From NCBI GenBank assembly GCA_947474855.1, contig CANJKV010000003.1, positions 1 through 64,000 of the forward strand: DNA of 64,000 nt, read 5' to 3'. Position numbers and translations under genes: made by a program. Origin of the DNA: Aurantimonadaceae bacterium (lineage in GTDB: Bacteria; Pseudomonadota; Alphaproteobacteria; Rhizobiales; Rhizobiaceae). How positions within the stretch are numbered: the first letter of the stretch is position 1; every line of letters begins with the position of its first letter. The notes beneath the pieces were generated by a model. That model was not told the origin of the DNA. It did no database searches and was given only the letters and a program-made list of their open reading frames with translations. Below are positions 40,148-50,186 of the stretch, one piece after another.

Positions 40148-43100
40148 TCATCCCACACCCGGGGCCGGGACGCCGTCCCTGTACCGCCTGAACCGCTCGT
40201 GTTGAAGGCGGGCGAGGATCCGCCAGAGCGGGAGCGGCATCGGCTCGGCGAGAGACCTCAGGCGATTGACGTCGAACTCCCATTGCAGGAGACGCCTGCG
40301 CCTCTCGTCCTCCTCCAGCTCGGTGTTCTCCACGAAGGTGCGGTTCATCTTCGCGCGCTCCAGCCGGAGCCGCAGGCCGGCCCGGACCCGCCGCCCGAGG
40401 CCGACGAGCAGCGCGTCCGCCTCCGCCAGGAACGCCTCGGCGATTCGCAGGCGTGTCGCCAGGTTGTCGCCGTTGCTCAGGAGCCGGAGCATGGTGGCCT
40501 CGAGGACGATCTGGGCCGAGCGCTCCCTGCTGAAGCGGAACAGGTTCCGCGAAAGTCCGTCCAGGGTCCGTCGGGCCTGCTGGCTGAAGACGCTCGGTTC
40601 GTTGCCGGCACGGCACCGCTTGGCCGCAGAGCGACGTCCCTCAAGCTTCAGGGCGACGCGCACGATCTGTCGGGCGGCGTTGCCGGACGCGAGGTAATGG
40701 ATTCCGAGCGGATCCATCGAGAAGGTGGCGAGCCGCAGTTGCTCGGACAGGACGAGCCGGGCGAACGACGAGCAGAAGAGTTCGTCGATGCGCTCCTCCA
40801 GCGTGTCCTCCGGACCCGACAGGAACGCCCTCATGATCGGCAGCCTGCCCTCGCCCGATGAACCGACGTCCGCCGGGCGGTTGAGCTTGCCGGCCGCCCC
40901 CGCAAGGTCCGCGACGGTCGCCCCGAGCTCGCCGAGGCGGGCATAGACGTCGCTGATCTCGTGGAGGACCGCCGCCGCGCTTCGGCCGTCCCCGAGGCGA
41001 GCCGCGACCTCGCCGATCTCGGGGGGCATCGCGAAGGCGTTGGGGGGCAGTCTCGGCGTGGCGGTCCCGAGTCTCGGGTCCGGCGGCCTCAGCACGGCCA
41101 GGTACCTGCGGGCCTGCCGCTCCAGCGCCTCGTCCAGCGCCGCCTTGAGCCCCTCGCCGTCGCCGCACGCCGTGAGCGCGCGCGAGATGCGGCTCTCGAC
41201 GGCCGCGGCATCGATGCTCTCGCCGCTCAGGAGCCTGATCTCGAACAGCCGCTTGAAGGCCCCGTGCGGGATCTCCGGTCCGAGGGAGGCCCGGGCTGAC
41301 GAGGTTCCGACATCCGGCGCGGACAGGAGGGTCCCCTCGGCCGTCGGCACCTCGCCGACCGCGAGGTAGCTCTGCGCGAGGGCGGCCCGGTGGTCCGCGG
41401 GAATGTCGGCGAAGCCCCTTCCGAGCCGCCCCATCCACTCGACCAGCCCCGCGCCCATGGGCGGAGCCGGGTCCGGCCGGATGGCCTTCGGCCAGAGCTG
41501 CCAGGGTTCGTCGAAGTAGGTGAGGATGTCCCCCTTCAACTCGTCGAGGCCGTAAAGCCGCGACAGGTTCCACGCTGGGGGGTTCTCGATCAATCTCCGA
41601 TAGCAGAAGGCGTAGAGATACAGCCAGAACTGCGAGGGCCTCGAGGAGGTCACCAACGACCGGGTGCCGAACTCGAGGTCGTCGTCGACCGACATCGCGC
41701 CGGACGCGTCGATGGACACGGGGATGCTCTGGAGGCCGCTGTAGATCACCGAGAGCATGCGCCGCCACGGCCGGATCGACTGGAGGCCCGTGTTGTCGAG
41801 GTGTCGGAGGGAGATCGTCTGCTGGGTCAGCGCGTCCTCGGCGAGGAGGCGGTGGACGGCGTGGAAGTCCCGCCGGGAAAGCCGCCTTGCGGCCGCGTCG
41901 CGCGCGAGGAGCTTCGTCTCCGGGAACAGGTAGTCGACCGACCGGGCGGACGTGTCGTCGCCGTCCGTGGCCGACAGGCCGTACTCGAGCGGGTGGGACG
42001 ATCCACCCTTCGGGGAGGTCCCGTCGAGGCCCTCGAAGGCGTCGTTGCGCACCAGCCCGAGGATGGGAAGGGCGTGCCCGCACAGGCGGTCGATCTCCGC
42101 CGCCAGCTCCCCCCGCCCCTCGCTCGCGGCCATCTCCGGCAGCACCGTCCACGGGACGGTGCGCCCGGCCCGCGCGAGGCGGCGCAGCGTGCCTGGCCGC
42201 AAGCCGTCCGGGGTCATCGACACGACGAGTGCGATCTCCAGCCAGAGGGGCGAACGCTCGGCAAGGATCGCGAGGAAGGCCTCGACCGCTTTGTCGACAA
42301 TGACGAGGCGGCGCCCGCTGAAGCGCCGGACGAGCTCGTCTACGCGCGCGGGGAACCTGTCGGGATCGAGTTCCAGCGCGACGCTCAGGACCGCCTCGAC
42401 GAGGTTGATGGCGTCCGTGCCGTCCGACTTGAAACCGTCGGCTTGCGAGACGCGCCGCAGGGCGTGCCCGATGGTGTCGCCGTCCCTTCCGTCGCCCGTC
42501 GGCGGGTGCACCCGGTTCCTGTCGACCGCGCCCGACCACTCCGCCCCGTCGAGGATGGGCAGGCGGAACGTCTGGGGCGAGACGGCTCCCGGCACCCGGG
42601 CCAACCGCTTGAGGCGGACCTCGTCGAGGCGCTCGTTGGACGTCACCACGATCCGGTTGTCGCGGAACGTCGCCAGGTCCAGGGTCGGGTCCCCGCCCAT
42701 CGGCGGCTCGAGAAGGCGCGCCCAGAGCGAGTCGAGGTAGTCGTCGGCGATCCTGCGTTCCAGCAGCGTCATCCGGTCGTCGACGTGGTGACCGTCGAAG
42801 ACGAGGATCGCGGGCCGCTCGGCGAGGGAGAGCCGGATGCGATGGACCACGTCAAACAGGCCATCGGCATCCGACATCGGCGCGCCGCCCCCGGCATCCC
42901 CGCTGTCCCGCCCCTCTGCGAAGGCGCGCAGGCGGCCCAGCACCTGCGAGATGTTGAGGATCTCGAACCCGCCCGAAGCGGTCCGCGTCCGCGTCGGCAG
43001 GAGGAGGGTCCTCCTCTCCTCCCGCGCCAGGTCGCCGACCCACCGCGCGCAGGCGGAGAGCCCGAACCAGAGGCCCTTGCCGTGGATGTTGACGAAGGTC

Positions 43101-43756
43101 GGCTTCCCGGCCCCCTTCGCGAGCGCGCCCTCCACCCATGCGGCGAAACCCGCGCGATCGGGTGCCGACATGAGGAAGTCCCCACCGCCCCTTCCACCGC
43201 TCCCCGCGCCCGCCGCCTCCACGGTCGGCGGATCCTGCGACCCGTCGACGGCCCCGGCATCCCCGCGCAACCAGGCGACATAGGCGTCGATCGCGTCTGG
43301 TCCGACGAACGGGCGCCCGAACATGGCCCGCTCGGTCTCCTGATCCAACGAGGGAAGCCCGCGGCGCCTCGCCACGAGGGTCGAGATGCCGCGCTCGAAC
43401 CTCCGGAGCTTGAAGCCGCCGACGCGATGATGGGCGATCTGGACGATCTTCTGGATGTTGCCCCCGTGCGTCGGCATCCGCCGCTGCCTGCGCTCGTCCG
43501 GCTCGAGCTTGCGGGCCTCCCTCGCCACGTCGCCAAAGAAGGTGCCGCGCTGCTCGCCGACGAGGGCCTCGATGCAGAGGAGGCGCGGGATGATCCCGAG
43601 ATCGCCTCCCGTGGCCATCAGCAGCCCCAGGGGTTTGCGGCAGACGATCCGCGCGCCACCCGCCTCCACCTCGAGCGGCTTCTCCCCGAGGCTCTCGGGA
43701 AAGCCCCTGCGCGCGAGCTCGGCCCACAGGAGACGCACGTCATCGAGATCGGCCAT
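40148..43756 (-). CDS. large (~1,200 aa) uncharacterised protein, possibly a degenerate NTPase
   Basis: MADLDDVRLLWAELARRGFPESLGEKPLEV...FVNIHGKGLWFGLSA...AILVFDGHHVDDRMTLLERR...RIVVTSNERLDEVRLKR; motif-like but non-canonical. Confidence 0.85.
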   Translation of the reverse strand: MADLDDVRLLWAELARRGFPESLGEKPLEVEAGGARIVCRKPLGLLMATGGDLGIIPRLLCIEALVGEQRGTFFGDVAREARKLEPDERRQRRMPTHGGNIQKIVQIAHHRVGGFKLRRFERGISTLVARRRGLPSLDQETERAMFGRPFVGPDAIDAYVAWLRGDAGAVDGSQDPPTVEAAGAGSGGRGGGDFLMSAPDRAGFAAWVEGALAKGAGKPTFVNIHGKGLWFGLSACARWVGDLAREERRTLLLPTRTRTASGGFEILNISQVLGRLRAFAEGRDSGDAGGGAPMSDADGLFDVVHRIRLSLAERPAILVFDGHHVDDRMTLLERRIADDYLDSLWARLLEPPMGGDPTLDLATFRDNRIVVTSNERLDEVRLKRLARVPGAVSPQTFRLPILDGAEWSGAVDRNRVHPPTGDGRDGDTIGHALRRVSQADGFKSDGTDAINLVEAVLSVALELDPDRFPARVDELVRRFSGRRLVIVDKAVEAFLAILAERSPLWLEIALVVSMTPDGLRPGTLRRLARAGRTVPWTVLPEMAASEGRGELAAEIDRLCGHALPILGLVRNDAFEGLDGTSPKGGSSHPLEYGLSATDGDDTSARSVDYLFPETKLLARDAAARRLSRRDFHAVHRLLAEDALTQQTISLRHLDNTGLQSIRPWRRMLSVIYSGLQSIPVSIDASGAMSVDDDLEFGTRSLVTSSRPSQFWLYLYAFCYRRLIENPPAWNLSRLYGLDELKGDILTYFDEPWQLWPKAIRPDPAPPMGAGLVEWMGRLGRGFADIPADHRAALAQSYLAVGEVPTAEGTLLSAPDVGTSSARASLGPEIPHGAFKRLFEIRLLSGESIDAAAVESRISRALTACGDGEGLKAALDEALERQARRYLAVLRPPDPRLGTATPRLPPNAFAMPPEIGEVAARLGDGRSAAAVLHEISDVYARLGELGATVADLAGAAGKLNRPADVGSSGEGRLPIMRAFLSGPEDTLEERIDELFCSSFARLVLSEQLRLATFSMDPLGIHYLASGNAARQIVRVALKLEGRRSAAKRCRAGNEPSVFSQQARRTLDGLSRNLFRFSRERSAQIVLEATMLRLLSNGDNLATRLRIAEAFLAEADALLVGLGRRVRAGLRLRLERAKMNRTFVENTELEEDERRRRLLQWEFDVNRLRSLAEPMPLPLWRILARLQHERFRRYRDGVPAPGVG

Positions 43757-43820
43757 GGCGGCACCCGGCGAGGTGGAGACGTCGCACCTTACCCTACGTC
43801 CGGTCCGCGGCAAGCGCGTC

Positions 43821-43935
43821 GGTACGATCGGTACGGATTTCCCGCCGGAGCCGCCCGGTCGCGGAAAGCGGACGCGCGAAAGGTACGGACAGTACGTTGA
43901 GATCGCCGCGCCGCCGGCCGGGACGCGAAGGTACC
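43821..43935. promoter_or_regulatory. GGTACG direct-repeat array in a divergent intergenic region
   Basis: GGTACG at 43821, 43830 and 43882; AGTACG at 43891; GGTACC at 43930; paired motifs spaced 9 bp. Confidence 0.5.
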
Positions 43936-44033
43936 CGCCGAACCGACGAATCTTAACGGATTACCGACGATATCGGACGACGCGGCCCCGCGGTCCGCCG
44001 ATGATGCGGCCATCGAAGACCAAGGAGGTCGAG

Positions 44034-45395
44034 ATGGCGAAAAGGGTAGACGATACGACTGCTCACATCTGGGGGCATTCCCCCGAGGATCTGAGGAACG
44101 CGTCCTTCGGCGAGCGCTCGAAGGCGAGACTGTTCACCGGCACGCTCCTCCTGGGAGGGGCCTTCCACGCAACCGTCACGGCCTTCTGCTTGCAGGGGCT
44201 CGGCCTGTCGCTCGCTGCGTCGGTCGCCACCGGTACCCTGAGCAGCCTGCTCTGGATGAGCACCGACCTGACGATCGTCCGCGTGGAGCGGGAGCACAGG
44301 GCGGCCAAGGAGCACTGGGAGGTCGCGGGCGGCGCGCCTCCGACACCGCCGGGACCGGCGAGATACGTCAGGTACGCGGCGGCCTTCGTCTACATGGCGG
44401 GCATCGGGGTCGGCGGCACCATCCAGTTCATGGACGGCAGCATCGACCAGCGCCGCGCCGAGATGCAGGAGGCCATCGACGAGCCGTACAGGACCGCTGC
44501 GGAGCGCGAGTTCGGCAAGATACGCGCGTCCGCCGAGGCGGCCGAGACCTCCGCCGTCGCGGAACTCGGGTCCTTCGACGCCGGGGAGGCGGAAGCCGCC
44601 TCGGCCCATGGGTCCGCCATGGAGGCGCACCTGGGCGAGGCCCGGCGCCTGACCGCGGCGAGGTCCGCCCTTGAGCAGCAATGGGACGCCGTCAGCGCGG
44701 ACGTGGCGAGGCATCGGGCGCTGGCGGCCTGCGAGGTGGAGGGCGTCTCCGCCAACCCGCTCTGCGAGGGCGCCACGGGGGCCGCCGGTCCCGGCGGCAA
44801 CTTCAGGCTCGCGACGCTGGCGGCCGAGGCGGGCGAGGCCCGCCTCCGGGAGATCGACGGGCGGATCGCGGAGACGAAGGCGGCTCTGACCTCCCTCGCC
44901 CCTCCGGTGGCGCCGGAACCGGATCACGCTCGGCGGGACCGGCTCGTCGCGGACGTGAGGGCGGCCGCCGCCGCCAAGGCGGAGACGATCGAGGGCGGGA
45001 ACGCCTTCGTTGAGGCCGCCGTCGCCGGAAACCCCGGCCGGCGCGTCCTCACCGACAACCTGTTCACGAGGATCTCGATCCTCGGCGACCTCTTCGCCGA
45101 GTCCTGGGCCTTCAAGCTGTACGCGTTCCTCCTGGAGGCCGGCATCGTCGCCGTGGAGCTCACCGTCCTCATGGTGGGCGGGATCGGCAGGCCGGGTCTG
45201 CTGGACCTCGCGGCCGAGCACCGGCGGCGGGCCGGGCTGCTGCGGCTGGCCAAGGATTCACTCGGCCTCGCCGCCGACATCGCGGCCGAGCGCAACAACG
45301 TCGTCTTCATGGACAAGTTCCGCCGCGAGACCGAGGCGGACGGCTTCACGATCTTCGGGCGCGGCGACGGGGATGGTCCCCCTGCCGCAGAGTGA
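44034..45395 (+). CDS. DUF4407-like membrane protein (TM pairs around a long coiled coil)
   Basis: LFTGTLLLGGAFHATVTAFCLQGLGLS...AAFVYMAGIGVGGTIQFMDGSIDQRRAEMQ; Ala/Glu-rich middle; AFKLYAFLLEAGIVAVELTVLMVGG. Confidence 0.8.
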   Translation: MAKRVDDTTAHIWGHSPEDLRNASFGERSKARLFTGTLLLGGAFHATVTAFCLQGLGLSLAASVATGTLSSLLWMSTDLTIVRVEREHRAAKEHWEVAGGAPPTPPGPARYVRYAAAFVYMAGIGVGGTIQFMDGSIDQRRAEMQEAIDEPYRTAAEREFGKIRASAEAAETSAVAELGSFDAGEAEAASAHGSAMEAHLGEARRLTAARSALEQQWDAVSADVARHRALAACEVEGVSANPLCEGATGAAGPGGNFRLATLAAEAGEARLREIDGRIAETKAALTSLAPPVAPEPDHARRDRLVADVRAAAAAKAETIEGGNAFVEAAVAGNPGRRVLTDNLFTRISILGDLFAESWAFKLYAFLLEAGIVAVELTVLMVGGIGRPGLLDLAAEHRRRAGLLRLAKDSLGLAADIAAERNNVVFMDKFRRETEADGFTIFGRGDGDGPPAAE

Positions 45396-45409
45396 GAAGG
45401 AGAAGGCAG

Positions 45410-45982
45410 ATGAACAACGACCGACTCGGCGGCGGCGGGCGTGGGACGCTCGTCACCGTCCGCGGGCAGGGAAGCCATGACCTCGCCCGTGCCCCCGTCG
45501 CCAGGCGCGACTCGGGCCTCGGCTACTTCGAGAACAGGCGGAACAACCGCCAGCGGGCGCTGGACCACGCCGAGATCGTGCGCGAGGTCGACCGCCGCAA
45601 GTGGGAGCAGGCCGCGGACGTGGAGCTCCTGGACGGCGAGGCCCGGGCGGAGGAAGCCAAGCTCCTCATCGTGGGGCGCGTCTTCGAGGCGACAGGCGAG
45701 GCGTCCGAGCAGATCCGCGCGCTCGGTGGCGACACCAAGCGGAGGATCGTCGAGGCGACGGGCGACTCCGTCGTCGCGCTGGGCGAGGCGGGAACCAGGA
45801 TCGACGCCAAGATCTCGTCGTCGGACATGCATCCCGCCGTGAAGGGCTTCGCCCAGAACGCCATGGCCGGGATGATGGCCGCGGCTGCCGAGGGGATCGT
45901 CGCCAGCGGGTACGAGGCGATCAGGAACGTCGACCGCAAGGTCGACAGCATCAACTCCTCGCGCTTCGCGCCGAAGGACTGA
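45410..45982 (+). CDS. helical hypothetical protein
   Basis: MNNDRLGGGGRGTLVTVRGQGSHDLARAPVARRDSGLGYFENRRNNRQRALDHAEIVREVDRRKWEQ...; RBS gagaaggagaaggc. Confidence 0.75.
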   Translation: MNNDRLGGGGRGTLVTVRGQGSHDLARAPVARRDSGLGYFENRRNNRQRALDHAEIVREVDRRKWEQAADVELLDGEARAEEAKLLIVGRVFEATGEASEQIRALGGDTKRRIVEATGDSVVALGEAGTRIDAKISSSDMHPAVKGFAQNAMAGMMAAAAEGIVASGYEAIRNVDRKVDSINSSRFAPKD

Positions 45983-46067
45983 GACGTGCGGGGCGGACGA
46001 TGTGCCGCCCCGCATTCCCGCTGCCGGAAACGGCCCGGCAGTCCCACCGGAACGAAGGATCCGAACC

Positions 46068-46907
46068 ATGACCGGACCAGCGGATACCCTGCCAAGCCCT
46101 CCCACCGCACCACACATCGCGGGCGCTCTCTCCCGCCGCGTAGCGGTCATGGCGCGCGCGATCGCCCAGATGCTCCGCGTTGCGGGCGCCATGCTCCTGT
46201 TCTGGGCCGGAGGTCCGGCCGCGGCGGGTCCGTCGGTGACGGTGACGGCGAACGGCCGCCACCCGTCGCAGCTCCAGTGGGACGGCGTGCGCGTCTACTG
46301 GCTGCCCTTCGACGTCAGCACGATCTCGGCCGCCGACCTCGTGGCCTGCGCCGTGCAGGACCGGGTGGCGTGCTCCGGAGTGCCCTGCCCCGACGCCGAT
46401 CGATGCGAGTTCGAGCTCCCGTCCGTGGACGCGTCGCGGCCGTTCGCCCTCATCGTTTATGACTGGGACGGGCTGCTCGAGGACGAGGTCTCGGCCGCCG
46501 CCCGCGGCCTCTCGGTCGGTTCCGACGCAGTGGCCTCTCTCAAGGGCCTCGTCGCCGACCCGGCCTGGGGCGCGCGCGCCGACGGCGCCGCCGACGCGGC
46601 CTCGGGCCTTCTCGCGGCGGCCTCGGACGCGCTCGGCGAGGCGAACGGGCGGCGCCTCGAGTTCATGGACGCGGCCATCCTCGTCCCCTCGCCCGACATG
46701 GCGGACCAGCCCGCCCTCGCCGCGCTCGTCCGCGAGCACGTGGGGGCCGCCGCCCGCCTCGACGGCTCGGTCCTCGGCGTGCGCCGCCTCCGGGGCCCGA
46801 TCGCAACCCTCACCTACGCCGACTGCGTGTGGCCGAGCCCGGCCTGCGCCCTCGCCTACGCCGACATCGAGTTCAAGGAGAAGGAGAAGGACCATGAAGC
46901 GGACTAG
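46068..46907 (+). CDS. secreted/exported hypothetical protein
   Basis: signal-peptide-like MLRVAGAMLLFWAGGPAAAGPS; then PSVTVTANGRHPSQLQWDGVRVYWLPFDVSTIS...RPFALIVYDWDGLLEDE. Confidence 0.75.
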   Translation: MTGPADTLPSPPTAPHIAGALSRRVAVMARAIAQMLRVAGAMLLFWAGGPAAAGPSVTVTANGRHPSQLQWDGVRVYWLPFDVSTISAADLVACAVQDRVACSGVPCPDADRCEFELPSVDASRPFALIVYDWDGLLEDEVSAAARGLSVGSDAVASLKGLVADPAWGARADGAADAASGLLAAASDALGEANGRRLEFMDAAILVPSPDMADQPALAALVREHVGAAARLDGSVLGVRRLRGPIATLTYADCVWPSPACALAYADIEFKEKEKDHEAD

Positions 46908-47562
46908 ACGCGAATTCCTCGTCGGCGCGGCCATCCTCGGAGCGGCGGCCCTGTTCGGGTTCGGCGGGGACGCCCGGGCGGCGCCCCGGGGCGGGAGTGG
47001 CCCCAAGGTCATCACTCCCCCGACCGTGAGGACGGCGAGGAGCTCGGCGGTGCGGGCCTCGGCCGCCGCGGGGGGACACCTCCACAAGCACGTCGGCGCC
47101 TCGCCCGCGTACCTCGCCTCCCGCACGCAGTCGATGGACATGAGGTTCTCCTTCGAGGCCGCGGCGAGGCGGGGGCGGAAGGGACGGAAGGCGGCCGAGG
47201 CGCTCTCCCAGTTCAGGGCGCGGCCCTCCCGGATCAGCTCGTTCCGCAACGGCCCGACAATGGACCGGATCTACGAGCAGGCGATGCGCCGCGAGAGGGC
47301 GCAGGTCGCGGCCTGGGCACGGACCGCGAAGCCGGGCGACAGCTATAGGCTCGGGTTCTCGTCCGCAAAGCCCGTCGGCACGGTCTACACGACGATGCCG
47401 GGATCCGGCACGGGCCGCCACGCGCCTGCTTCGCGGGGCGAGTTCATCCTCCGCAAGGGCGGCTCCGCGGGTGTCTACCCGCACACGGCCAAGCTCTTCG
47501 TCGGACGCGAGGCCCCGACGCGCCGGGCGGGCGCCGCGACCGACCGCAAGGCGGCAAGGTGA
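46894..47562 (+). CDS. Tat-signal protein with RNase A-like / CdiA-CT-like C-terminal domain (putative toxin)
   Basis: MKRTRREFLVGAAILGAAALFGFGGDARA Tat signal; GGHLHKHVGASPAYLASR...SSFRNGPTMDRIYEQAMRRERAQVAAWARTAKPGDSYRLGFSSAKPVGTVYTT...GEFILRKGGSAGVYPHTAKLFVG. Confidence 0.7.
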   Translation: MKRTRREFLVGAAILGAAALFGFGGDARAAPRGGSGPKVITPPTVRTARSSAVRASAAAGGHLHKHVGASPAYLASRTQSMDMRFSFEAAARRGRKGRKAAEALSQFRARPSRISSFRNGPTMDRIYEQAMRRERAQVAAWARTAKPGDSYRLGFSSAKPVGTVYTTMPGSGTGRHAPASRGEFILRKGGSAGVYPHTAKLFVGREAPTRRAGAATDRKAAR

Positions 47563-47574
47563 GGGAGAGGCGAG

Positions 47575-47847
47575 ATGGAAATCGGACGCGAACTGCTCGA
47601 GCGCCTTTCCGGCGAGGTGTTCCACGAGACGGCGGACCTCGACGGCGACCTCGGTCCCACGCTCGACGCCTTCCTCGACACCCTCGACCCGACGGAGCGA
47701 CGCGCCCTGCGAGACGAGCTCGTTTCGCTGGCGGGGGCGGGCGAGGAGGAGCGGCGGGAGCGCCTCGACGAGATCGGCTTCGCCTGGGAGTTCGACGACG
47801 GGGCGGGCTTCCTCTCGACCCTCGCGCAGGTCCTCGACGACGAGTGA
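47575..47847 (+). CDS. small acidic protein, candidate immunity protein for the preceding toxin-like gene
   Basis: 90 aa, Asp/Glu-rich, starts 12 nt after the toxin-like stop: MEIGRELLERLSGEVFHETADLDGDLGPTLDAFLDTLDPTERRALRDEL...AWEFDDGAGFLSTLAQVLDDE. Confidence 0.7.
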   Translation: MEIGRELLERLSGEVFHETADLDGDLGPTLDAFLDTLDPTERRALRDELVSLAGAGEEERRERLDEIGFAWEFDDGAGFLSTLAQVLDDE

Positions 47848-47967
47848 GGCCAAGGGGGCGGGTTCCGACCCGTCTCCACGACCGCCCCTCAGCGGATCGC
47901 CGCAGGCCAGCGGCGGTCCGGCCAACGGCAGCTTTCCGCACGAACGGGCACGACGAAGGGAGAACGC

Positions 47968-48714
47968 ATGATGCCGCCCCTCAAGCCGCCGCTCCGCGGG
48001 ATCGGCGAACCGCCCCCCTGGCCCGCGCCGCCACTCTATCCCGGCGACTGGCTCGACCTGCCCGACGATGTGGTGGCGCGGACGGGGAGCCTCCTGGAGC
48101 GCTTCGCGGACGCGCGGGCCTTCCCGAACCTGACGGGACGCTTCCTGCGCATGCGGGCCCTGCGCCTGCCCTTCTATCCCGGCTGGACGCTCCTGGAGAT
48201 CCTGGGCCGGCCGCTCGGCAAGCGCCTCGGCGTGGCCCGCGTCCTCCTTGGAAGCGAGAGGCCCCTGCTCCTCAACGGATCGGCGGGCATCCTCCACATG
48301 GTCAACTCCAAACATCTCGAGGGCCTCGACGACCCGGCGACGGTCCGGCACTACCTGCGCTTCTTCTGTAGCTGCGTCCACGGCGAGGAAGGGGGCGGCA
48401 CCCGCTTCCAGGTCGTCGAGGGCATGGACGAGATCCCGCCGGAGATGGTGCGTCCCGGCAAGGTCGAGACCGTGTCCGCTGCGGTCCGCCCGATCGAGGA
48501 GGTCGACGGCCCGTCCGCCCTCCTCGCGACGCTCGTCTACGGAGGGAGCCTCTTCCGCTCGCTCATGAGGATCGACTCCTCGGGAATGGTGGTGATGGAG
48601 GACGACGAGCCGATCGCGGAGGACGTGTTCCGCCTGCGCGAGTGCTTCGACGGACCCTGGCAGATGCACCCCCACGAGATCGTGCCCCACCAACCCAAAC
48701 CGGAGACGGAGTGA
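47968..48714 (+). CDS. hypothetical protein
   Basis: ORF with protein-like composition between the immunity-like gene and the VirD4-like gene. Confidence 0.7.
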   Translation: MMPPLKPPLRGIGEPPPWPAPPLYPGDWLDLPDDVVARTGSLLERFADARAFPNLTGRFLRMRALRLPFYPGWTLLEILGRPLGKRLGVARVLLGSERPLLLNGSAGILHMVNSKHLEGLDDPATVRHYLRFFCSCVHGEEGGGTRFQVVEGMDEIPPEMVRPGKVETVSAAVRPIEEVDGPSALLATLVYGGSLFRSLMRIDSSGMVVMEDDEPIAEDVFRLRECFDGPWQMHPHEIVPHQPKPETE

Positions 48715-48719
48715 TCGCC

Positions 48720-50186
48720 ATGGCAGACGGAACGAACGGGCCGGGGACGCGCCGGGGCGTGATCGTGGGGCGAGAGGCCGCCGGGAGGCCGTCCATCGGC
48801 TTCGCGACCCGGCCGCGGCCGGAGGGTCCCGGCACGGCGGTCGGGGCGCCGCTCGACGGGCACGCCATCGCGATCGCCCCGACGGGCGCCGGCAAGCTGC
48901 TCTCCCTCGTCGTCCCCTGGACGCTCGGCTGGCCCGACGAGGGATCGGTCCTCGTGGTCGACCCGAAGGGCGAGGCGGCGGCGGTGACGGCGCGCGCCCG
49001 GGCACGGCGCGGCTCCGCCGTCCACGTCGTCGACCCGTTCCGCGTCAGCGGCCTGCGCCCATCGCCGTGCAACCCACTCCGGTTCATCGATCCCGACAGC
49101 GAGGACCTCCTCGACGACGCGAGAGCCGTGGCGGAGATGATGCTTCCTGAGCGTCACGACGTGCGGGACGCGTTCTGGCGCAGCCGGGCGCTTTGGTTCG
49201 TGACGACGGCGATCGTCCACGTCATGAGGGAGCGCAAGCCGCCGGAGCGGACCCTCGTGTCGGTTCGGGACGTCGTGTTCGGGTGGGCGCGGTCCATGAG
49301 GCGCGGCGAGCAGTTGCCGGGGGCGGCGGCGACGGCCCTGAAGCTTGAGGGCGACGATCCCGAGGTGAGGCGCGCCGCGGAGACGATGGAGCTCGGGTCG
49401 CCGGAGACGGTCGGCGGGATCCTCCACTACGCGCTCGAGGCGGTCGGCTTCATCCGCGGGGAGCCCGTGGAGCGCAGCCTCGAGTGCGGGGGCGTGGACT
49501 TCGAGTCCTTCGCGAGGGGCGATCCGACGACCTGCTTCCTCGTCCTGCCGCCCCACCTCCTGAAAACCCACGCGCCGCTGCTGCGCCTGTGGTCGTGGGC
49601 GTTCCTTTCGTCGGTCCAGCGGCGGACCCGCCCGCCCGCGGGCAGGACGCTGTTCGTCGTCGACGAGGCCGCCCAGCTCGGTCACTACGGCCCCCTCCTC
49701 ACGGCGGTCACGTTGCTTCGCGGCTACGGCCTGTCCACCCTCTCGCTCTGGCAGGACGGGGCGCAGCTCCGCTCCGCCTATCCCGACGATTGGAGGACGA
49801 TGGTCAACAACTGCCGGACGCTCGCCTGCTTCGGGGCGCGGACCGATGCGGGCTGGCGCGACGCGCTCGACACGCTGGGGATGGCGGGGTGCACCCGGTC
49901 GGAGGCGGAGGGACGGATCCTCGTGCTCTCGGACGGGCGGGAGCGGCTGCTCGACCGCATCGACTACCGGACGGATCCGCTCTTCGAGGGCGAGTTCGAC
50001 CCGAACCCGTTCCACGAGGCCGACGCGGGACCGATCGTCAGGCCGCGGACGAAGCGGCGCAAGCCGCGACGCCCGGCGGCCCGCCCCGGAGGCACGAGGA
50101 GACGCGTCGACCCCGACCTCGCCCGCGAGTACGATGCCGTCAAGGCGCAGGTGATGGCGCTCTGGGAGCCGGAAGCCGTGTTCTGA
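48720..50186 (+). CDS. TM-less TraG/VirD4-like (type IV coupling protein family) ATPase
   Basis: DGHAIAIAPTGAGKLLSLVVPWTLGWPDEGSVLVVDPKGEAAAVTARARA; TLFVVDEAAQLGHYGPLLTAVTLLRGYGLSTLSLWQDGAQLRSAYPDDWRTMVNNC. Confidence 0.88.
   Translation: MADGTNGPGTRRGVIVGREAAGRPSIGFATRPRPEGPGTAVGAPLDGHAIAIAPTGAGKLLSLVVPWTLGWPDEGSVLVVDPKGEAAAVTARARARRGSAVHVVDPFRVSGLRPSPCNPLRFIDPDSEDLLDDARAVAEMMLPERHDVRDAFWRSRALWFVTTAIVHVMRERKPPERTLVSVRDVVFGWARSMRRGEQLPGAAATALKLEGDDPEVRRAAETMELGSPETVGGILHYALEAVGFIRGEPVERSLECGGVDFESFARGDPTTCFLVLPPHLLKTHAPLLRLWSWAFLSSVQRRTRPPAGRTLFVVDEAAQLGHYGPLLTAVTLLRGYGLSTLSLWQDGAQLRSAYPDDWRTMVNNCRTLACFGARTDAGWRDALDTLGMAGCTRSEAEGRILVLSDGRERLLDRIDYRTDPLFEGEFDPNPFHEADAGPIVRPRTKRRKPRRPAARPGGTRRRVDPDLAREYDAVKAQVMALWEPEAVF

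What the first reader, a model, noticed from the sequence alone, without database searches (positions are those of the whole stretch)
40148..50186. Candidate undescribed effector/translocation locus: orphan 1.2k-aa protein, DUF4407-like membrane protein, secreted protein, Tat-RNase-A-like toxin plus immunity, VirD4-like ATPase
Seven tightly spaced co-directional genes (44034-50186) are divergent from one giant orphan gene (40148-43756). The operon combines a coiled-coil membrane protein, an exported protein, a Tat-signal protein with a CdiA-CT/RNase-A-like tail, a small acidic protein directly after it, and a TraG/VirD4-type ATPase. No VirB, relaxase or conjugation genes are visible. I know of no described system with this composition; the inferred function is contact- or envelope-associated antagonism, or defence.
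Basis: partly seen in the sequence, partly recalled or inferred. Interest (0 to 1): 0.9.

Follow-up and report, generated by a model that had tools for sequence, protein, structure and literature searches.

The report
Modular toxin locus with VirD4-like ATPase
A bacterium carries a tight gene cluster combining an exported RNase-like toxin, its probable antidote and a cytoplasmic motor protein related to those of DNA-transfer machines; only the motor and its neighbour recur together elsewhere, each time beside a different weapon, which suggests a little-known plug-in conflict system.

Summary
The genes are real and placed as described: one 1202-aa gene (40148-43756, -) diverges from seven tightly packed genes (44034-50186, +). 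The cluster is compositionally uniform (GC3 0.90-0.94). It holds DUF4407; a Tat-signal protein with a RNAse_A_bac domain above Pfam's cut-off; a small acidic protein whose best Pfam hit is CdiI_2 (sub-threshold); and a VirD4-family ATPase. The whole cluster was found only in a 99.99% identical Antarcticirhabdus assembly, so 'one eight-gene system' is not shown. What recurs is the last gene pair, 47968-50186: an unannotated domain protein plus a VirD4-like ATPase without membrane helices. It was found in three lineages (this one, Sinorhizobium plasmids, genome G734), beside different effectors each time: RNase-A toxin plus immunity-like gene; patatin plus nSTAND1-ankyrin; CHAT-TPR plus DUF4384. 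These ATPases form a clade (98/94) inside a soluble group separate from the conjugative MOBQ coupling proteins. I read it as an accessory conflict locus built on a repurposed, soluble T4CP-like ATPase with swappable effectors, not a T4SS, CDI or conjugation module. Function and mechanism are inferred; single-sequence AlphaFold models were useless. Interest moderate; most likely a new variant of a known kind.

The parts
40148..43756 (-). 1202-aa orphan protein (P0001), divergent; possible degenerate STAND-like NTPase plus helical repeats (by eye only)
   Evidence: No Pfam/NCBIfam/PADLOC/PHROG hit; one near full-length homologue, Rhodovulum sp. P5 pRGUI01, 26%; hhalign to nSTAND regions negative
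43757..44033 (.). 277-bp divergent intergenic region, presumed to hold both promoters
   Evidence: sequence; no sigma70-type consensus found in scan
44034..45395 (+). DUF4407 membrane/coiled-coil protein (P0002)
   Evidence: PF14362, 52.5 bits over cut-off 31.3; no homologue in 188 other sampled genomes of the family or in plasmids
45410..45982 (+). 190-aa cytoplasmic protein of unknown family (P0003)
   Evidence: coding model and RBS; no family hits
46149..46907 (+). 252-aa exported protein (P0004); start could be 46002 or 46068
   Evidence: hydrophobic N-terminus with AAA cleavage-like site, by eye; no family or plasmid hit
46894..47562 (+). 222-aa Tat-signal protein with bacterial RNase A-like toxin domain (P0005)
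   Evidence: PF18431 29 bits over cut-off 27; aligned with relatives, GGH and the C-terminal Thr kept, the following Tyr/Phe is Lys
47575..47847 (+). 90-aa acidic protein, probable cytoplasmic immunity protein (P0006)
   Evidence: best Pfam match CdiI_2, E 0.0011, below cut-off; RNase A toxins in the same order are usually followed by a ~90-aa gene
47968..48714 (+). 248-aa protein of an unnamed family (P0007); recurring partner of the ATPase; same domain ends an nSTAND1-ankyrin and another NTPase-TPR protein
48711..50186 (+). VirD4/TraG-family ATPase without membrane helices (P0008); start GTG 48711 overlaps the stop of P0007
   Evidence: T4SS-DNA_transf 130 bits; Walker A APTGAGK and B conserved in its clade; no TM; clade 98/94

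Best explanation
An accessory bacterial conflict locus assembled from modules. Core: P0007 (adaptor-like domain) translationally coupled to P0008, a cytoplasmic ATPase derived from type IV coupling proteins but without a membrane anchor; the pair is carried with different effectors in different lineages. Here the effector is an RNase A-fold toxin (P0005). Inferred steps: the toxin folds in the cytoplasm, is held inactive by P0006, and is exported folded through Tat, leaving the antidote inside; cells with P0006 are protected. P0002 and P0004 would be envelope components and P0001 a large regulator or sensor. P0008, recruited through P0007, would act as an ATP-driven motor or switch on DNA or protein during deployment or sensing. 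Shown: gene content, toxin family, lack of anchor, recurrence of the pair, change of neighbours. Inferred: everything about action, including that all eight genes act together.
For: P0007-P0008 pair adjacent and same-strand in three lineages at 37-45% ATPase identity: window (4-nt overlap), Sinorhizobium plasmids (3-nt gap), G734 (4-nt overlap). Neighbours differ and are conflict-type: patatin plus nSTAND1-ankyrin whose C-terminus is the P0007 domain; CHAT-TPR, DUF4384 and caspase; RNase A plus CdiI_2-like (patatin also matches PADLOC phospholipase effectors). ATPases of the pair form one clade (98/94) within a soluble group apart from MOBQ coupling proteins (100/100); the P0007 tree does not reject co-inheritance (window plus G734 93/97; p-AU 0.32). 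Sporadic: among 398 family genomes the close relatives are the two near-identical Antarcticirhabdus and G734; 1 of 6 in G734's genus. Uniform GC3 and tight spacing.
Against: Only three independent pair loci. P0007 relatives also stand alone beside housekeeping genes in many alphaproteobacteria, so the domain need not be about conflict. Soluble VirD4-like relatives occur alone, and one near a MobA/MobL relaxase. P0005 lacks the Tyr/Phe of its relatives' active-site end and P0006 is below the CdiI_2 cut-off. A Tat-exported toxin and a cytoplasmic ATPase need not meet. A 120-nt gap separates P0006 from P0007. No functional data.
Confidence: 0.42

Rival explanations
1. Chance neighbours in a genomic island: an independent RNase A toxin-immunity cassette (P0005-P0006), an envelope cassette (P0001-P0004) and a P0007-P0008 pair, sharing location and perhaps transcription but not one function.
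For: The full cluster is found in no independent genome; P0001, P0002, P0004 and P0005 are absent next to the other P0007-P0008 pairs; the RNase A relatives in the order occur with a ~90-aa neighbour in unrelated settings; 120-nt gap before P0007.
Against: Co-directional with 12-14 nt gaps and overlaps, the same GC3 (0.90-0.94) and repeated RBS motifs; effector-type genes also flank the pair in the other two lineages.
Confidence: 0.33
2. P0008 is a relic or minimal mobilization coupling protein of a mobile element; the locus is cargo, and P0008 helps recruit DNA to a T4SS encoded elsewhere.
For: Nearest wider relatives are coupling proteins of MOBQ plasmids; TMD-less coupling proteins that work in conjugation exist (TraJ of pIP501; PMC7434980); the genome has a Trb-type T4SS on contig C10; one soluble relative lies near a MobA/MobL relaxase.
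Against: No relaxase recognised next to the pair here, in Sinorhizobium or in G734; separate clade from the MOBQ proteins; the contig with the own T4SS has its own coupling protein.
Confidence: 0.13
3. A protein-translocation machine in which P0008, anchored by the DUF4407 protein, drives secretion of P0005.
For: TMD-less coupling proteins can pair with separate membrane proteins; DUF4407 membrane protein and exported proteins are in the same cluster.
Against: No channel genes; no DUF4407 hit among the neighbours scanned at the other two pair loci; P0005 carries its own Tat signal, so it would reach the periplasm without P0008.
Confidence: 0.07

Closest known systems
VirD4/TraG type IV coupling proteins (MOBQ-plasmid T4CPs; TMD-less T4CPs such as TraJ of pIP501, PMC7434980)
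   Same: Same ATPase family with Walker A/B and most of the T4SS-DNA_transf core; TMD-less members are known
   Different: No membrane anchor, no relaxase or T4SS beside it, separate clade (98/94 for the pair, 100/100 from MOBQ), coupled to P0007
Bacterial RNase A-superfamily toxins: CdiA-CT Ykris/CdiI (PMC9086364) and P. aeruginosa Ribocin (PMC13189344)
   Same: PF18431 domain; small gene behind it with CdiI_2 resemblance; like Ribocin a stand-alone nuclease-type protein with a signal peptide
   Different: Not the tail of a CdiA; carries a Tat-type signal; active-site Tyr/Phe position is Lys; Ribocin acts on eukaryotic ribosomes and no immunity partner is mentioned in the passages read
NTP-dependent bacterial conflict systems (Kaur et al. 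2020, PMC7159879; Kaur et al. 2021, PMC8195603)
   Same: Constant part plus swapped effectors; STAND, TPR, CHAT, caspase-type neighbours at related loci
   Different: The terms VirD4 and TraG do not occur in the text of those papers; the constant part here is P0007-P0008
Sinorhizobium plasmid loci (CP050559, NZ_CP148088, NZ_CP149879) and G734:C18
   Same: P0007-P0008 pair, 37-45% ATPase identity, adjacent or overlapping genes
   Different: Effectors patatin/nSTAND1-ankyrin and CHAT-TPR/DUF4384 instead of RNase A; no DUF4407 or P0001 found there

Membership tests
VirD4/TraG type IV coupling protein | T4CP nucleotide-binding core with Walker A and B | tested here: met
   T4SS-DNA_transf 130 bits; APTGAGK and VVDEAAQLG conserved
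VirD4/TraG type IV coupling protein | N-terminal transmembrane domain | tested here: not met
   no hydrophobic segment in P0008 or its clade; the full-length MOBQ relatives from alphaproteobacteria have 2-3
VirD4/TraG type IV coupling protein | Relaxase or T4SS genes in the same locus | tested here: not met
   gene content of the window, L014 and L063
RNase A-superfamily bacterial toxin (PF18431) | Domain score above Pfam cut-off | tested here: met
   29 bits versus 27
RNase A-superfamily bacterial toxin (PF18431) | His, Thr, Tyr, Arg active site (as in Ykris, PMC9086364) | tested here: inconclusive
   GGH His and C-terminal Thr kept; Tyr/Phe position is Lys; Arg not mappable
CdiI_2 immunity protein (PF18593) | Score above Pfam cut-off | tested here: not met
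   20.1 bits versus 26.7, E 0.0011, yet the top hit of 24736 families
Contact-dependent inhibition (CDI) | CdiB/CdiA two-partner secretion genes | tested here: not met
   no such genes in the cluster; toxin is 222 aa with its own Tat-type signal
STAND-based conflict system | STAND NTPase in the locus | tested here: inconclusive
   P0001 matches no family; hhalign to nSTAND regions negative; nSTAND1 is present at the Sinorhizobium locus
STAND-based conflict system | Conserved core with exchanged effectors | tested here: met
   three loci, three effector sets, though n=3
Known anti-phage defence system | Match to PADLOC models | tested here: not met
   only a weak mad8 hit for P0008 (3.8e-5) and a weak LeoBC hit for P0002 (0.014)

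The most novel reading that the evidence does not exclude
P0007-P0008 is the core of an undescribed class of bacterial conflict system in which a soluble, repurposed coupling ATPase serves interchangeable effectors (RNase A toxin, patatin, CHAT protease), with P0007 as the docking domain that is also fused to STAND proteins.
Probability: 0.3. Interest if true: 0.75.

Novelty: new variant of a known kind. Interest (0 to 1): 0.5.

Why it matters
If right, a DNA-transfer motor has been detached from membrane and channel and built into conflict loci as a general engine, and the unnamed P0007 domain becomes a marker for finding more such loci and their effectors. It would also give a Tat-exported RNase A-fold protein next to an immunity-like gene, a delivery route not described for this toxin family in the papers read.

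Tried and rejected
1) 'One conserved eight-gene system': rejected as shown; the only other copy is 99.99% identical over the whole region, so it carries no evolutionary information. 2) P0001 homologue in G048: spurious match to an unrelated protein. 3) P0001-P0007 shared domain suspected by eye: no support. 4) Phage origin: no relatives in viral contigs in six scans, only weak T4CP-type hits in phage records; PHROGs hits only for the neighbouring DprA-like gene, apart from a marginal one for P0002. 5) AlphaFold of P0007 and mature P0005 from single sequences: mean pLDDT 33 and 43, unusable, so no fold search was run. 6) PDB sequence searches for P0007, P0001 and P0005: nothing significant. 7) P0006 against the immunity-position genes of relatives: no significant profile match. 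8) Searches for papers on anchor-less coupling ATPases in conflict loci: none found. The gene caller used for unannotated loci is my own simple model, so small genes there may be missed.

Full report
WHERE IT LIES. The window is part of contig C3 of a draft genome of a Hyphomicrobiales bacterium. The same stretch is 99.99% identical in Antarcticirhabdus aurantiaca R10. That copy is essentially the same strain or species and says nothing about conservation.

THE OBSERVATION. The eight genes are real. A codon and amino-acid model picks them over the long antisense ORFs of this 68% GC window. Their GC3 is 0.90-0.94, against 0.655 in the DprA-like gene that follows. Most starts have strong ribosome-binding sites, with a recurrent GAGAAGGAGAAGG-ATG motif. 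The seven + strand genes are spaced 14, about 166, -14, 12, 120 and -4 nt. The giant gene is divergent across a 277-bp gap.

THE PARTS. P0002 has DUF4407. P0004 has a Sec-like signal by eye. P0005 starts MKRTRREFLVGAAILGAAALFG...ARA, a Tat-type signal seen directly, with Tat models just under cut-off. It carries PF18431, the CdiA-CT RNase A domain, above cut-off. Aligned with eight relatives from the same order it keeps GGH and the C-terminal Thr, but has Lys where most have Tyr or Phe. In the Ykris toxin the active site is His175, Arg186, Thr276 and Tyr278 (PMC9086364), so catalytic competence is open. P0006's best Pfam hit is CdiI_2, a CDI immunity family, below cut-off; a ~90-aa gene usually follows the RNase A toxins of relatives. 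P0001 matches nothing and has one near full-length homologue, at about 26%, on a Rhodovulum plasmid. There it again diverges from genes for exported proteins and one predicted by eye as a coiled-coil membrane protein (sequences), which is suggestive only.

WHAT RECURS. P0007 belongs to an unnamed family (no Pfam match in any of 12 members) found in 21 of 385 sampled alphaproteobacteria in varied settings. It is also the C-terminal domain of a Sinorhizobium nSTAND1-ankyrin protein and of a Thiodictyon NTPase-TPR protein. P0008 is a VirD4/TraG-family ATPase with intact Walker motifs but no membrane helix. P0007 and P0008 lie together in three lineages: here (4-nt overlap), Sinorhizobium plasmids (3-nt gap) and genome G734 (4-nt overlap). 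Around them are, respectively, RNase A toxin and CdiI_2-like gene; patatin and nSTAND1-ankyrin; CHAT-TPR, DUF4384 protein and a caspase. The paired ATPases form one clade (98/94) inside a group of anchor-less relatives, separated from the MOBQ coupling proteins with support 100/100. The P0007 tree puts the window and G734 together (93/97) and does not reject all three as one clade (p-AU 0.32). Distribution is sporadic, as expected of accessory loci.

INTERPRETATION. A constant pair with changing effector-type neighbours is the signature of modular conflict loci. I therefore favour a conflict locus whose core is P0007 and P0008, with the RNase A toxin and its probable immunity protein as the local effector. 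A Tat substrate folds before export, so a cytoplasmic immunity protein is what a Tat-exported RNase would need; this is inference from general knowledge of Tat. How the ATPase contributes is unknown. My guess is an ATP-driven motor or switch recruited through P0007. The main rival is that the cluster is several unrelated cassettes in one island; three pair loci are too few to exclude it. A mobilization role is less likely: no relaxase or T4SS genes lie beside the pair, and the contig with the genome's Trb-type T4SS (C10) has its own coupling protein. But soluble relatives occur on mobile elements, one near a MobA/MobL relaxase, and coupling proteins without a membrane domain are known (PMC7434980).

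NOVELTY. No library or paper searched describes the pair. The pieces are known families, so 'new variant of a known kind' is the fair class, with a real chance that the core is an undescribed class.

Noticed in passing
window:50376-51428 (+): DprA-family gene, best PADLOC match ShosA (4.4e-69); GC3 0.655 against 0.90-0.94 in the cluster before it, so a separate import; no ShosT partner recognised.
   Followed up: partly
window:35080-36328: ParD/ParE toxin-antitoxin pair beside an IS1595-type transposase fragment.
   Followed up: no
L010:7311-14931 (Rhodovulum sp. P5 pRGUI01): Distant P0001 homologue again divergent from genes for secreted proteins and a predicted coiled-coil membrane protein; possibly a second recurring layout.
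   Followed up: partly
L057:11154-16595 (G415): Stand-alone soluble VirD4-like ATPase next to a CHASE2 membrane protein and an M48 peptidase-TPR protein.
   Followed up: partly
L087, L091, L092 (G897): Several RNase A-type toxin domains with small neighbour genes on the same short contigs, looking like tandem arrays.
   Followed up: no
L015:15142-19727 (Sinorhizobium medicae T10): Beside the P0007-P0008 pair: a DUF4062/AAA/TPR protein and a TrkA-N plus RyR-like (sub-cut-off) protein.
   Followed up: no
L036 to L053: The unnamed P0007 domain occurs as single genes beside housekeeping genes in many alphaproteobacteria; a wide uncharacterised family with no Pfam entry.
   Followed up: partly
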